Below are positions 12,935 through 22,064 of a stretch of 35,005 nucleotides of DNA, one piece after another. Origin of the DNA: Paracoccaceae bacterium (GTDB lineage Bacteria > Pseudomonadota > Alphaproteobacteria > Rhodobacterales > Rhodobacteraceae). The notes under the pieces are model-generated. The model had not been told where the DNA came from and searched no databases. It worked only from the letters and a program-made list of their open reading frames with translations. The position numbers and the translations under genes are program-made. Where the stretch lies: positions 1 to 35,005 of the forward strand of contig JACSRN010000134.1 of NCBI GenBank assembly GCA_014879735.1, in the 5' to 3' direction. Every line of letters begins with the position of its first letter. Within the stretch, counting starts at the first letter, position 1.

Positions 12935-13702
12935 TCAGACGGTCGATGCCTTGCGGCAAGAGGCGACAAGCGCTGTCGTTTCCCGCGCCAGCAGCCAGGT
13001 GTCGGCCCCCACGGCAATGAAACCGGCGCCCTGTGCCCTGGCTTCTGCCGCTGCCGCAGCCCCATAGGCCAGCACGCCGGCATGGCAGCCTGCGGCAGTG
13101 ATCCGCTGCAGGCCATCGGTGATTGCCCCCCGCACCGGCGCGGCCCAAGGCGCGCCGGCATGGCCCATGGCGGCGGCCAGATCGCCCGGCCCGATGAAGA
13201 TCGCGTCGACACCCGGCACTGCGGCGATGGCTTCGATATTGCGCAGCGCCAGCGGCGTTTCCGCCTGGACGATCACGCAGGTCTGCGTCTGCACCTCGTC
13301 GCGGTAGCCAGTATCGCGACCATAGTCGTTGCCGCGCATCACCCCCGAGTATCCACGGCTGCCATGCGGCGGATAACGGGTCCAGGCCACGACGGCGGCG
13401 GCCTGCTCGGCGGTATCGATCATCGGAAACATGATCGACTGCACGCCGATATCCAGCAGCCGCTTGGTCACGACCTGATCGGAGACCGGCGGGCGGACGA
13501 GGACGGAGGTTCGGTTCTCGGCCGCGCGCAACTGATCTGCGACCGAGGCGATCTCGTTCGGGGAATGCTCCATGTCGATCAGCAGCCAGTCGGCGCCCGA
13601 TCCGGCAGATATCTCTGCCGATGCCGCAGAGCAGAGGCTGAGCCAGAGGCCCAGCTGTGGTGCGCTGGCCGACAGGGCGGCCTTGAAGGCATTTTTGCGC
13701 AT
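12935..13702 (-). CDS. HpcH/HpaI-family class II aldolase
   Basis: This 255-residue TIM-barrel aldolase of the HpcH/HpaI family cleaves 2-keto-3-deoxy (or 4-hydroxy-2-oxo) acids to pyruvate plus an aldehyde, using a divalent metal. Seen: 'DWLLIDMEH' (residues 38-46), the Arg in 'SVLVRPP', 'GVQSIMFPM', 'YPPHGSRGY', the metal-ligand Glu in 'VIVQAETPLAL' and Asp in 'IFIGPGDLAAAMG'. The length matches the family. The ATG overlaps the IolD stop by one base (TGATG), so it is translationally coupled and last in the catabolic operon. It probably performs the final C-C cleavage. The exact substrate (deoxy-keto-acid chain length and stereochemistry) cannot be read from sequence. Confidence 0.88.
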   Translation of the reverse strand: MRKNAFKAALSASAPQLGLWLSLCSAASAEISAGSGADWLLIDMEHSPNEIASVADQLRAAENRTSVLVRPPVSDQVVTKRLLDIGVQSIMFPMIDTAEQAAAVVAWTRYPPHGSRGYSGVMRGNDYGRDTGYRDEVQTQTCVIVQAETPLALRNIEAIAAVPGVDAIFIGPGDLAAAMGHAGAPWAAPVRGAITDGLQRITAAGCHAGVLAYGAAAAAEARAQGAGFIAVGADTWLLARETTALVASCRKASTV

Positions 13703-15555
13703 CAGACGCTCACCCGCTGCTGGGCGCGCCCGGCCATGTGATCGGCCCGCGCGTCGCGGATTTCCTGGCGGTTGCTGATCTCTGGCACGCCGACGTCCCA
13801 CCAGGCATCGCCCGGGGTCCAGCGATCATCGGCCACGGCGATCCAGAGCACCACCGTGCGATCCTGTTTGCGGGCCCAGGCAAGGGCGGCGGGCAGATCG
13901 GCCAGGTTTTCCACCTTGCGGGCCGCCGCCCCCATTGCGGCAGCATGGGCGGCGAAATCCACGCGCACCACGTCTTTCACCCGGCAATCGCGCAGCAGGT
14001 TGTTGAACGGCTTGTTGCCCTTGAACACCTGCAGGCGATTGATCACGGCGAAGCCGCCGTTGTCGCAGACGACGACCGTCATCTTGTGGCCGGTCAGCAC
14101 GCTGGAATAGATGTCGGAGTTCATCATCAGATAGGCGCCGTCGCCCAGCATCACGAAGGTCTCGCCCTCGGGTCGGGCCATGGCAGCACCCCAGCCGCCG
14201 GCAATCTCGTATCCCATGGTCGACGAGCCCATCTCGCAATCGAACCCGTAGCGGCCCTTGACGCGCCAGCCCTTGGTCAGTTCGCCCACGACGCCGCCCG
14301 CCGCGGACAGAACCATGTCCTCGGGCCGGGAACTGGCGTTCACCGCGCCAACGACCTGCGCATAAGAGGGAATGGCGGCATTGTCCGGCGCCTGCAGCCG
14401 GTCCACCAGCCCGTTCCAATCCGCCATGTCCTGCGCCGCCTGCGTCAGGCAATGCGCCGGCGCGCGCCACTCGCCAAGGGCGGCGTCCAGATCGGCGATC
14501 CCTTCGCGGGCATCGGCAACGACGGCGATGGCGCGGTGCTTGTTGGCGTCGAACCGCGCGGTGTTCAGGGCCACGATCCGGCAGTCCGGCGCGAACACCG
14601 ACCAGGATCCGGTGATGAAATCCTGCAACCGCGTGCCGATCGCCAGCACGACATCCGCCCGCCGGGCGGCGGCATTGGCAGCGGTGGAGCCCAGGACGCC
14701 AAGCAGATCAAGCGACAGGGGATCGCCGGCCAGCATCGTGCCCTTGCCCGCAATCGTTTCCGCCACTGGAATGCCGCGCTTGCGGGCGAAGGCCAGCACT
14801 TCGTCTTCGGCAAGCGAATAACGCACGCCGCCACCGGCCAGGATCATGGGGTTCCGTGCCGATTTCAGCGCCGCCACCGCCCGGGCAACCTCGGCCCGGT
14901 CAGGGCGCGGCCGCGGGATCAGATGCACCCGGCGTTCGAAGAAGACGGAAGGATAGTCGAAGGCCATTTCCTGCACGTCCTGGCACAGCCCGATGAAGGC
15001 CGGGCCGGCCGTCGCGGGGTCCAGCATGGTCGAAACCGCCTGTGGCAGCGAGGAGATGATCTGCGCCGGATGGGTGATGCGGTCCCAATAGCGGGTGACG
15101 GGCTTGAAGCCGTCGTTCACCGTCACCGTCGGATCGTCAAAAGTCTCGACCTGCTGCAACACGGGATCGGGGCGCCGGGTGGCAAAGACGTCGCCAGACA
15201 GGAACAGGACCGGGATGCGGTTGGAATGGGCTGCCGCGGCGGCGGTGATCATGTTGGTGGCGCCCGGCCCGATGGACGAGGCCGCGACCATGATCTGCCG
15301 GCGCCGCTTGACCTTGGCATAAGCCAGCGCCGCCAGCGCCATCGATTGTTCGTTCTGCCCGCGCCAGGTGGGCAGGGTATCGCCCGCAGCCTCCAGCGCC
15401 TCGCCGAGGCAGGTCACATTGCCATGGCCGAAGATCGCCATCACGCCGGCGAACAGCGGGGTCTCGCTTCCATCGTCGTTTGCCAGGAATTGCGCTGTCA
15501 GAAAGCGCACCAGAGCCTGCGCCATGGTCAAGCGGATCGTCTGTTGTGTCATCAT
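13702..15555 (-). CDS. iolD: 3D-(3,5/4)-trihydroxycyclohexane-1,2-dione hydrolase (IolD)
   Basis: This 617-residue thiamine-diphosphate enzyme matches IolD of inositol catabolism, which hydrolytically opens the cyclohexanedione ring to 5-deoxyglucuronate. Seen: the IolD-like start 'TMAQALVRFL', 'IFGHGNVTCLGEAL', the catalytic Glu69 in 'RGQNEQ', the IolD-type block 'FATRRPDPVLQQVE', and the ThDP/Mg motif from GDG (471-473) to the Asn in CDNGG (about 499). The length fits the family (about 610-640). The start is either of two tandem ATGs after GGAGCAAGG. It lies 37 bp after the ABC ATPase and overlaps the aldolase. The usual iolB, C, E and G partners are absent from this window, so its substrate here may be a related cyclic diketone. 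Confidence 0.85.
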   Translation of the reverse strand: MMTQQTIRLTMAQALVRFLTAQFLANDDGSETPLFAGVMAIFGHGNVTCLGEALEAAGDTLPTWRGQNEQSMALAALAYAKVKRRRQIMVAASSIGPGATNMITAAAAAHSNRIPVLFLSGDVFATRRPDPVLQQVETFDDPTVTVNDGFKPVTRYWDRITHPAQIISSLPQAVSTMLDPATAGPAFIGLCQDVQEMAFDYPSVFFERRVHLIPRPRPDRAEVARAVAALKSARNPMILAGGGVRYSLAEDEVLAFARKRGIPVAETIAGKGTMLAGDPLSLDLLGVLGSTAANAAARRADVVLAIGTRLQDFITGSWSVFAPDCRIVALNTARFDANKHRAIAVVADAREGIADLDAALGEWRAPAHCLTQAAQDMADWNGLVDRLQAPDNAAIPSYAQVVGAVNASSRPEDMVLSAAGGVVGELTKGWRVKGRYGFDCEMGSSTMGYEIAGGWGAAMARPEGETFVMLGDGAYLMMNSDIYSSVLTGHKMTVVVCDNGGFAVINRLQVFKGNKPFNNLLRDCRVKDVVRVDFAAHAAAMGAAARKVENLADLPAALAWARKQDRTVVLWIAVADDRWTPGDAWWDVGVPEISNRQEIRDARADHMAGRAQQRVSV

Positions 15556-15592
15556 ACCTTGCTCCTGAAGGGCTCCACCCGGCTGAACCCGG

Positions 15593-21201: not shown

Positions 21202-21371
21202 GTTCAGGCCTCCCTCTTCGTCGGGACTGTGTGCTGGGGGTCTCTATAAGTCAATAATAGTAATTTATGTTATAGCTACTCGTTGGTTATTTTATTGATT
21301 ATAATATATAAAAAGGTATTGCCTTGCGGACAAAAAATTACTACTTTTTACAACATAGGAAAGGTTGTGTC
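21202..21371. promoter_or_regulatory. AT-rich divergent control region
   Basis: 170 bp between the dehydratase operon and the GntR-family gene. It is far poorer in GC than its neighbours, with two candidate elements. TCAATAA (21251-21257) is an inverted match to TTATTGA (21292-21298), and several TATAAT-like hexamers lie at 21296-21310. This is the expected location for both promoters and the regulator's operator. The exact site cannot be set by eye. Confidence 0.5.
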
Positions 21372-22064
21372 ATGAAAAGTCCGCTTGCTGACCAAGCCGT
21401 CACCCGAATCAGGGCGATGCTTCACGTCCCCGGCCACACCCAGGGTGGCCGTCTGCCGCCGGAGGAGGCGCTCGCCGCCGAGTTGGGAATTTCACGGCCG
21501 GTGTTGCGGCAGGCCCTGGCGCAACTGAAGGCCGAGGGCCTGCTGGAATCGCGCCGGGGTTCGGGAACCTATATCCGACCCGCCGCGGCCAAGCCCGAAG
21601 CCCTGCCCGGCTACGGCATGCCCGAGACGCTGGCGGATCTGGAGGATTGCCTGCGCTTTCGCATGGTGATCGAGGAGCTTGCCGCAGCAGAAGCGGCACG
21701 GCGGCGCGCCCCGGCCGCGCTGCGCGAACTGGCGCAGGCAGTAGAGGCCATGGAACGCGCGCCGGTCACGGAGGCGCAGAACTTCGAAGCGGACATGGCC
21801 TTTCATCTGGCCATCGCCCGCGCGACCGAGAACCGCTACATCTTCATGACGCTCAGTTTCCTGATGCCGCATATCCGCATCTGCCTGCAAATGGGGCGCC
21901 AGTTGCGGGCGGTTCCGCTGAACCTGGCATCGCGCAGGGTTGCGGGCGAACATCGGGCAATTCTGGCATCGATCGAAAGCGGCAATGCAGAGGATGCCGC
22001 GCAGCGCATGCATGACCATCTGCTGGCCGGGATCGAGCGGGTATTCGGCAAGAGAGGGTGGTAA
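21372..22064 (+). CDS. FadR-subfamily GntR transcriptional regulator
   Basis: 230 residues. The N-terminal winged helix-turn-helix (about 33-70) contains 'LGISRPVLRQALAQLKAEGLL' and the wing 'SRRGSGTYIRP'. The C-terminal all-helical FCD effector domain shows the metal/ligand Asp-His pattern in 'FEADMAFHLAIA' and the later 'EHRAILASIESGNAEDA' and 'MHDHL'. FadR-type regulators with FCD domains bind sugar acids or related metabolites and usually repress the divergent operon. The start at 21372 was chosen because upstream in-frame codons lie in the AT-rich control DNA. It probably controls the dehydratase-to-aldolase operon. Confidence 0.9.
   Translation: MKSPLADQAVTRIRAMLHVPGHTQGGRLPPEEALAAELGISRPVLRQALAQLKAEGLLESRRGSGTYIRPAAAKPEALPGYGMPETLADLEDCLRFRMVIEELAAAEAARRRAPAALRELAQAVEAMERAPVTEAQNFEADMAFHLAIARATENRYIFMTLSFLMPHIRICLQMGRQLRAVPLNLASRRVAGEHRAILASIESGNAEDAAQRMHDHLLAGIERVFGKRGW

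What the first reader, a model, noticed from the sequence alone, without database searches (positions are those of the whole stretch)
12935..22064. Candidate new catabolic pathway: enolase-type dehydratase + lactonase + SDR + sugar importer + IolD + HpcH aldolase
Eight genes on one strand, almost all overlapping or within 37 bp, go from importer to aldolase under a divergent FadR-type regulator. IolD normally works with IolG, IolE, IolB, IolC and IolJ. None of these is here; instead there is a mandelate-racemase-type dehydratase, a lactonase-like hydrolase, an SDR and a pyruvate-type aldolase. This suggests a different route to, or a different substrate for, an IolD-like ring opening (a cyclitol, deoxy- or methyl-inositol, or a sugar lactone).
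Basis: partly seen in the sequence, partly recalled or inferred. Interest (0 to 1): 0.72.

Follow-up and report, generated by a model that had tools for sequence, protein, structure and literature searches.

The report
IolD operon with uronate-type oxidation cassette
A tight bacterial operon couples an inositol-ring-opening enzyme to enzymes that look like a sugar-acid oxidation route, in a genome that seems to lack the usual partner enzymes, so it may break down a ring-shaped sugar alcohol by a route not met in the papers searched.

Summary
The operon is real: eight minus-strand genes in 12935-21201 (enolase-type dehydratase, amidohydrolase, SDR, three importer genes, IolD, HpcH aldolase) and a divergent GntR/FCD regulator. 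IolD passes its cut-off (802 of 715 bits) and falls in an IolD clade where 30 of 35 other rows show iolE nearby. The genome (98.87% complete) has no IolE or IolB match; of 60 genomes searched with all three models, the 17 others with IolD match both, 14 over both cut-offs. Dehydratase, amidohydrolase, SDR and aldolase recur elsewhere without IolD; 2 of the 3 such loci with the amidohydrolase carry an IolB over cut-off instead. IolD makes and IolB consumes 5-deoxyglucuronate, so a (5-deoxy)uronate is the likely entry metabolite. The 'lactonase' is nearest to Atu3138, sharing its Asn where LigI has Asp248, so may be a lactone isomerase. Best reading: IolD feeds a kinase-free oxidative uronate route ending in pyruvate plus a C3 semialdehyde. 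Substrate, upstream steps and all activities are inferred. New variant of a known kind.

The parts
21372..22064 (+). GntR/FadR (FCD) regulator, divergent; ORF open from TTG 21324
   Evidence: PF00392 + PF07729; homologs divergent to the dehydratase in L086 (47%), L091 (42%), L087 (37%), L093 (32%)
21202..21371 (.). AT-rich divergent promoter region; shares a TTGTAAA-AGTAGTAA-like stretch with L086
   Evidence: seen by eye, two copies only, not tested against chance
19966..21201 (-). Enolase-superfamily acid-sugar dehydratase (ENO), GTG start
   Evidence: PF02746/PF13378; best solved relatives 2pod, 4dx3, 3dip, no function in the molecule names; K183, E227, H229, E253, E279, D302, H329 invariant in the 12 of 81 sequences aligned (roles recalled)
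19136..19969 (-). Amidohydro_2 protein (AHS), lactone isomerase or lactonase
   Evidence: PF04909; nearest structure 4mup = Atu3138 by sequence and by model; Asn221 at the LigI Asp248 position
18384..19145 (-). Classical SDR, predicted (5-deoxy)uronate C1 dehydrogenase
   Evidence: PF13561; nearest solved: N-acylmannosamine 1-DH, galactitol DH; homologs 60/49/48% in L086/L087/L088
17370..18359 (-). Sugar-type periplasmic binding protein
   Evidence: PF13407; rhizopine-SBP model 117 bits, cut-off 420; 47-58% homologs behind a 45-47% ENO in 12 of the 80 ENO loci
16324..17370 (-). CUT2-type permease
   Evidence: PF02653
15593..16366 (-). Single-domain ABC ATPase
   Evidence: PF00005
13702..15555 (-). 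IolD-type ThDP ring-opening hydrolase
   Evidence: TIGR04377 802 bits, cut-off 715; tree; deviates at 5 of 139 near-invariant columns
12935..13702 (-). HpcH/HpaI class II aldolase
   Evidence: PF03328; HpaI model 258 bits, cut-off 369; best solved relative HpaI 4b5s with the recalled catalytic residues conserved

Best explanation
The operon encodes a kinase-free, oxidative lower branch for a cyclitol. The ABC importer brings in the substrate. After oxidation to a cyclic 1,2-dione by dehydrogenases outside the operon, IolD opens the ring hydrolytically to a uronate, most likely 5-deoxyglucuronate. The SDR oxidises its aldehyde end to an aldarolactone; the amidohydrolase moves the lactone to the other carboxyl (or opens it); the enolase-type dehydratase eliminates the 3-oxygen to give a 2-oxo-3-deoxyaldarate (for 5-deoxyglucuronate: 4-hydroxy-2-oxohexanedioate); HpcH cleaves it to pyruvate plus malonate semialdehyde. 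It replaces IolB, IolC and IolJ and works like the Udh-Gli-Gci route for hexuronates with an aldolase at the end. Shown here: gene content, family membership, no IolE or IolB match in the genome assembly, recurrence of the module, its link to IolB in two other loci. Inferred: every reaction, the order, the substrate.
For: IolD over its equivalog cut-off and inside an IolD clade. Own genome: one IolD over cut-off, 0 IolE, 0 IolB; the 17 other IolD-bearing genomes among 60 match both, 14 over both cut-offs. ENO, AHS, SDR, HpcH and GntR recur together in L086 (76, 52, 60, 61, 47%); ENO, HpcH, AHS and SDR in L088 (63, 41, 38, 48%), with a second enolase-type gene among them; GntR, ENO and AHS in L087 with an SDR about 5 kb on. 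IolB over cut-off lies in the module of L086 and L088 (285 and 265 bits, cut-off 205), in 2 of 80 ENO loci, both among the 3 with AHS (Fisher p about 0.001 by my arithmetic, post hoc). IolD product and IolB substrate are both 5-deoxyglucuronate (established). AHS is nearest to Atu3138 by sequence and by fold, with its Asn. HpcH is nearest to HpaI, whose known substrate is the C7 homologue. L091 has GntR, ENO, a tricarboxylate-type importer and HpcH in a row, as expected if ENO and HpcH handle a diacid; its HpcH ORF as read lacks about 40 N-terminal residues.
Against: IolD with the module is seen in one genome only. No gene for making the cyclic dione is in the operon, and IolE is absent. The importer is homologous (SBP 47-58%) to one in 12 rhizobial and related loci that carry a 45-47% ENO, mostly with an SDR and an aldose-epimerase-like ORF (names from L200), which points to an aldose. 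No uronate dehydrogenase is among the SDR's families shown (25 of 220) or its 35 solved relatives at E<=1e-25; it is as near to polyol dehydrogenases. G819 (L087) and G821 (L091) carry part of the module with no IolD over cut-off and no IolB match; G820 (L088) has three IolDs over cut-off and G818 (L086) and G822 (L093) one each, none within the module locus. HpcH is below every equivalog cut-off shown. An IolC-like fusion exists elsewhere in the genome. Five of 29 family relatives of this IolD also show no IolE-like ORF in their 4.8-kb locus, so a lone IolD is not unique locally; their genomes were mostly not searched for IolE.
Confidence: 0.42

Rival explanations
1. Same cassette, but for a full hexuronate: an inositol is oxidised twice without dehydration, IolD opens the tetrahydroxy 1,2-dione to a hexuronate, and SDR, AHS, ENO and HpcH give pyruvate and tartronate semialdehyde, as in GarL-type hexarate breakdown.
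For: Explains the lack of IolE. Udh, Gli and Gci act on hexuronates and their lactones (PMC6353982, passages). HpcH also matches GarL models, below cut-off. In L092 KdgD and a talarate/galactarate dehydratase, both over cut-off, lie within about 6.4 kb of an ENO ortholog.
Against: IolD and IolB families act on the deoxy compound. In L092 a GntR-like gene lies between ENO and those genes, so they may be a separate operon. No second inositol dehydrogenase identified.
Confidence: 0.18
2. An ordinary non-phosphorylating aldose pathway (importer, SDR, lactone opening, dehydratase, pyruvate aldolase) with IolD as a neighbour of other or no function in it.
For: The five functions suffice for an aldose; importer homologs sit in clusters with an aldose-epimerase-like ORF; the SDR resembles aldose and polyol dehydrogenases.
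Against: IolD lies between importer and aldolase, with a 37 bp gap and a 1 bp overlap to its neighbours, and keeps 134 of 139 near-invariant columns. Does not explain IolB in the module of L086 and L088. The AHS Asn fits an aldarolactone enzyme (Atu3138; its activity recalled) better than LigI-type hydrolysis.
Confidence: 0.2
3. A remnant of, or a stray IolD from, ordinary inositol catabolism, the partner genes being lost or in assembly gaps; the IolC-like fusion would be the rest of it.
For: IolD is a bona fide family member; IolC-like PfkB-DUF2090 at G000:C38; 201 contigs.
Against: 98.87% complete, yet no IolE or IolB match and no IolG over cut-off. The IolC-like fusion scores 411 bits against a cut-off of 600 for the fused inositol enzyme and lies beside LacI and TRAP genes.
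Confidence: 0.1
4. The IolD protein has moved to another substrate, for example an open-chain dicarbonyl acid made by SDR and dehydratase, so the pathway concerns no cyclitol.
For: Long end branch of 0.84 in the tree; ten changes at 197 positions invariant in 35 close relatives; no IolE.
Against: Score over the IolD cut-off; deviation no greater than that of L085 (5 of 139 each), which sits beside iolE.
Confidence: 0.1

Closest known systems
Bacterial myo-inositol pathway (IolG-IolE-IolD-IolB-IolC-IolJ)
   Same: IolD, TIGR04377 over cut-off; a related IolD in same-genus genome G008 stands with iolE, iolB, iolC and iolG
   Different: no IolE or IolB match in the genome, no IolG over cut-off; no kinase in the operon; SDR, AHS, ENO and HpcH instead
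Oxidative hexuronate pathway of Agrobacterium (Udh, Gli, Gci, KdgD)
   Same: order of chemistry; AHS nearest to Atu3138 (4mup; that it is Gli is recalled), an enolase-superfamily member with it
   Different: classical SDR with no Udh hit seen, ENO nearer to 2pod and 4dx3 than to other solved enolase-type proteins, HpcH aldolase in place of KdgD, IolD in the operon
Hexarate pathways ending in GarL or HpaI-type aldolases
   Same: HpcH/HpaI aldolase with the recalled catalytic residues conserved
   Different: below the four NCBIfam equivalog cut-offs it matches
IolC-DUF2090 alternative aldolase (PMC9007349, passages seen)
   Same: an alternative lower branch for inositol
   Different: still phosphorylating; here no kinase in the operon
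Rhizobial SMP-30/GntR/ENO/ABC/SDR/aldose 1-epimerase cluster (12 ENO loci such as L140 and L159; annotated in L200)
   Same: homologous ABC importer, GntR and an ENO at 45-47%
   Different: SMP-30 lactonase, mutarotase and (L200) an FAH protein; no IolD, AHS or HpcH homolog of 100 bits or more in the 12 loci

Membership tests
IolD (TIGR04377) | score over the curated cut-off (715) | tested here: met
   802 bits
IolD (TIGR04377) | place among IolDs of iol clusters in a tree | tested here: met
   100/99 with 35 rows, 30 of which show iolE in their locus; long end branch 0.84
IolD (TIGR04377) | hydrolysis of trihydroxycyclohexane-1,2-dione | not testable with these tools
   needs enzyme assay
Classical myo-inositol pathway | IolE in the genome | tested here: not met
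   0 matches to TIGR04379 at E<=1e-3 in G000
Classical myo-inositol pathway | IolB in the genome | tested here: not met
   0 matches to TIGR04378 in G000
Classical myo-inositol pathway | IolG over cut-off | tested here: not met
   best 130 bits, cut-off 355
Classical myo-inositol pathway | IolC kinase | tested here: inconclusive
   TIGR04382 318 bits (cut-off 300) on another contig, but the fused inositol model scores 411 against 600
Classical myo-inositol pathway | IolJ aldolase | not tested
   no search made for it outside the operon
Oxidative uronate pathway (Udh-Gli-Gci) | uronate dehydrogenase | tested here: inconclusive
   classical SDR; no uronate dehydrogenase named among 35 solved relatives at E<=1e-25
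Oxidative uronate pathway (Udh-Gli-Gci) | Gli-type lactone isomerase | tested here: inconclusive
   4mup first by sequence (2.6e-42 against 4.6e-25 for the next) and by fold, Asn shared; activity untested
Oxidative uronate pathway (Udh-Gli-Gci) | enolase-superfamily enzyme acting on the lactone or acid | tested here: inconclusive
   superfamily and recalled catalytic residues present; substrate unknown
HpaI/GarL aldolases | equivalog cut-off | tested here: not met
   HpaI 258 of 369, GarL 214 of 407 bits
HpcH/HpaI superfamily | Pfam gathering score and catalytic residues | tested here: met
   PF03328 159 bits; Asp, His, Arg and metal ligands aligned with HpaI (roles recalled)

The most novel reading that the evidence does not exclude
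A complete IolE-independent and kinase-independent cyclitol pathway: a deoxy-inositol (quercitol) is oxidised twice to the IolD substrate, IolD makes 5-deoxyglucuronate, and a transplanted uronate-oxidation cassette (SDR, Gli-like lactone isomerase, enolase-type lactone-eliminating dehydratase, HpaI-like aldolase) turns it into pyruvate and malonate semialdehyde; in other bacteria the same cassette draws 5-deoxyglucuronate through IolB run in reverse.
Probability: 0.2. Interest if true: 0.78.

Novelty: new variant of a known kind. Interest (0 to 1): 0.6.

Why it matters
If true, it is a second, non-phosphorylating way to finish inositol-type breakdown after ring opening, assembled by joining two known kinds of pathway, and it gives a testable function to an enolase-superfamily group whose nearest solved relatives (2pod, 4dx3/4dxk, 3dip) carry no function in their molecule names. 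It would also correct genome annotation that calls any IolD-bearing operon 'myo-inositol catabolism'. Seven paper searches listed no paper whose title or abstract opening describes such a route; two returned nothing, and of the others only listings of 10 to 20 papers were seen. A search for quercitol catabolism in bacteria listed three papers, none on a pathway by title.

Tried and rejected
Rejected: (1) that all relatives of this IolD (60-66% identical) come without iolB and iolC. The 4.8-kb loci suggested it, but wider views show iolB and iolC in L083 and in same-genus G008; in L080, L081, L082, L084 and L085 none was annotated within 10 kb (L084's annotation is sparse). (2) That an Arg in GETFRNP marks the module dehydratase: it is also in L095, L101 and L122. 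(3) That the aldolase of those iol clusters is the window's aldolase: only 31-35%. (4) Four plasmid homologs looked at (of AHS: Caballeronia, Roseomonas; of SDR: Sphingobium; of HpcH: Sulfitobacter) sit in other contexts; the many other hits were not opened. (5) A search of 385 genomes of the class with the L086 AHS gave 12 with a match at E<=1e-60, the window the best (53%). In the 11 other loci (2.5-3.8 kb) no ENO or SDR ortholog appeared; 2 had a distant enolase-superfamily neighbour (23-24%) and 4 a hydroxyacid-dehydrogenase-like one. (6) A FadR-type operator: no consistent palindrome. (7) An IolE substitute: the genome has 7 PF01261 matches while the IolE model matches nothing; one PF01261 gene (G000:C53) pairs with a Gfo/Idh gene and stays possible. 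A sulfosugar route came to mind from listing PMC12421959 only and was not pursued.

Papers: PMC9007349, PMC9430895 and PMC6353982 were seen as passages; all others as search listings. PMC3977579 and PMC3366811 are not held. That 4mup/Atu3138 is the galactarolactone isomerase is recalled; the PDB title names Atu3138 only.

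Full report
OBSERVATION. ORF listing and family scans confirm an eight-gene minus-strand operon, 21201 down to 12935, with a divergent GntR/FCD regulator. Transcription order is ENO (enolase-superfamily dehydratase), AHS (Amidohydro_2), SDR, SBP, permease, ATPase, IolD, HpcH aldolase. Overlaps and gaps are at most 43 bp. The likely aldolase start is ATG 13702, overlapping the IolD stop by one base. The finding's order 'from importer to aldolase' is inexact: the dehydratase comes first.

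IOLD IDENTITY. The ThDP enzyme scores 802 bits against TIGR04377 (cut-off 715). In a tree of 58 rows it joins 35 others with 100/99 support. Of these 35 rows, 30 show iolE in the locus: 24 of 29 family loci of 4.8 kb and L020, and all 5 plasmid rows; L171, L173, L180, L188 and L193 show none. The other main clade holds 18 rows drawn, 17 of which show iolC or iolB (L009 does not), plus L203. The window's end branch is long (0.84; median 0.21), yet it departs at only 5 of 139 near-invariant columns, as many as L085, which lies beside iolE. In the same genus (G008) a related IolD stands in a full cluster with iolG, iolE, iolC and iolB.

MISSING PARTNERS. The window is contig C6 of a 4.39-Mb assembly, 98.87% complete, 201 contigs. 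It has one IolD over cut-off, 0 IolB matches and 0 IolE matches. Among the 60 genomes searched with all three models, 18 have IolD over cut-off. The 17 others all match both IolE and IolB: 14 over both cut-offs, 3 (G013, G018, G019) below them (IolE 172-179 of 290 bits, IolB 144-154 of 205). Only the window genome has neither (counted by me). IolG: best 130 bits against 355 (14 genomes). Against a full loss: an IolC-like PfkB-DUF2090 fusion scores 318 bits (cut-off 300) on contig C38, but 411 against 600 for the fused inositol enzyme, and it lies beside LacI and TRAP genes. IolJ was not searched.

THE MODULE. blastp of ORFs shows GntR-ENO-AHS-SDR-HpcH in L086 (47, 76, 52, 60, 61%); ENO-HpcH-AHS-second enolase-SDR in L088; GntR-ENO-AHS in L087, then TRAP genes, an alcohol dehydrogenase, a second enolase and an SDR; GntR-ENO-importer-HpcH in L091 and, more distantly, GntR, ENO and HpcH in L093. 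L089, L090 and L092 have ENO without an AHS, SDR or HpcH homolog of 100 bits. None of the 80 loci has an IolD homolog over 90 bits. IolB is in 2 of 80, L086 and L088, at 285 and 265 bits over the 205 cut-off, each on the same strand and 38 bp behind a module gene. Both are among the 3 of 80 loci with AHS; Fisher p is 3/3160, my arithmetic, post hoc, and some loci have short flanks. G818 (L086) also has IolD, IolE, IolB and IolC together on another contig, so the module IolB is a second copy. G820 (L088) has three IolDs and two IolBs over cut-off. G819 (L087) and G821 (L091) have no IolD over cut-off and no IolB match.

INFERENCE. IolD makes and IolB consumes 5-deoxyglucuronate (established for the families). 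A module joined once to IolD and twice to IolB therefore most simply handles that compound or a close uronate. The chemistry that fits all genes: SDR oxidises the aldehyde end; AHS handles the lactone; ENO dehydrates; HpcH cleaves to pyruvate and malonate semialdehyde. Lacking a 5-hydroxyl, 5-deoxyglucuronate cannot close as a pyranose and is expected as a furanose, so oxidation would give the 1,4-lactone, while elimination of the 3-oxygen as lactone leaving group needs the 6,3-lactone; a lactone isomerase would supply it. This is my deduction from structure, not a result.

AHS. Best solved relative 4mup (2.6e-42; next 4.6e-25); a model from four sequences (pLDDT 76, pTM 0.81) finds 4mup, titled Atu3138, first. 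Where LigI has Asp248 (mutants 4dia D248N and 4di8 D248A by title), 4mup and the window protein have Asn (Asn221), as do L086, L087, L088 and two plasmid homologs. That Atu3138 is the galactarolactone isomerase is recalled; the Udh-Gli-Gci route is described in PMC6353982 (passages).

ALDOLASE AND DEHYDRATASE. HpcH is nearest to HpaI (205 bits) with the recalled catalytic residues aligned, below the four equivalog cut-offs it matches. ENO is nearest to 2pod, 4dx3 and 3dip. L091 couples ENO and HpcH to TctC, TctB and TctA; L087 has DctP and DctM, L093 DctQ and DctM: acids as likely substrates. In L092 KdgD and a talarate/galactarate dehydratase over cut-off lie downstream, behind a GntR-like gene, so the link to hexarates is suggestive only.

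AGAINST. The importer is homologous (SBP 47-58%) to one behind a 45-47% ENO in 12 of the 80 loci. GntR, ENO and the three importer genes are in 12 of 12, an SDR and an epimerase-like ORF in 10, an SMP-30-like ORF in 9 (names taken from the annotated L200). This points to an aldose. The SDR is as near to polyol as to sugar dehydrogenases. No gene accounts for the cyclic dione.

VERDICT. A real operon of unusual make-up, a new variant joining an IolD to a uronate-type oxidation cassette; mechanism at 0.42, aldose rival 0.2, hexuronate variant 0.18. Seven paper searches listed no such route (listings only, open-licence PMC papers only).

Noticed in passing
L080-L085, L234, L235 (G008:C2:314000-333900): Recurrent cluster of iolG, aldehyde dehydrogenase, HpcH aldolase, hydroxyacid dehydrogenase and Gfo/Idh genes near iolD, mostly with iolE and an SDR, with or without iolC/iolB (not every gene in each): perhaps a second lower branch of inositol breakdown (for example via hydroxypyruvate).
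   Followed up: partly
L226 (G000:C38), 5160-14130: LacI and TRAP genes beside an IolC-like PfkB-DUF2090 fusion, a psicose-epimerase-like TIM barrel, an SDR and a metallo-beta-lactamase-fold protein: a sugar-acid pathway of unknown substrate.
   Followed up: partly
L133, L139, L140, L145, L149, L151, L152, L154, L159, L161, L162, L164 and L200: Cluster GntR-ENO-ABC importer, mostly with an SDR, an aldose-epimerase-like and an SMP-30-like ORF, in L200 with an FAH-family gene; importer homologous to the window's; substrate unknown.
   Followed up: partly
window 8024-12900: After tRNA-Ser (7933-8023) nearly 5 kb before the operon hold no ORF of 150 aa or more that looked like a gene by eye; two ORFs tested had no Pfam match. 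Possibly degraded island DNA.
   Followed up: partly
L085 16725-19115: A Klebsiella plasmid iolD/iolE cluster carries a membrane-bound PQQ dehydrogenase of the glucose/quinate/shikimate family (annotation), perhaps a periplasmic cyclitol oxidase.
   Followed up: no
window 21202-21371 and L086 9837-10003: Both divergent promoter regions share a TTGTAAA-AGTAGTAA-like stretch, a possible operator of the GntR regulator; seen by eye.
   Followed up: partly
L092 10001-17608: ENO ortholog followed by a GntR-like gene, Tct-type transporter genes (by eye), KdgD (402 bits, cut-off 374) and a talarate/galactarate dehydratase (637, cut-off 500).
   Followed up: partly
L227 (G000:C53) 6678-8560: Gfo/Idh dehydrogenase next to a PF01261 TIM barrel in the window genome: a possible source of an oxidised cyclitol for IolD.
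   Followed up: partly
L239 and L248: AHS relatives (46 and 43% to the window AHS) with a distant enolase-superfamily neighbour (23-24% to the window ENO): AHS and enolase-type genes may pair more widely.
   Followed up: no
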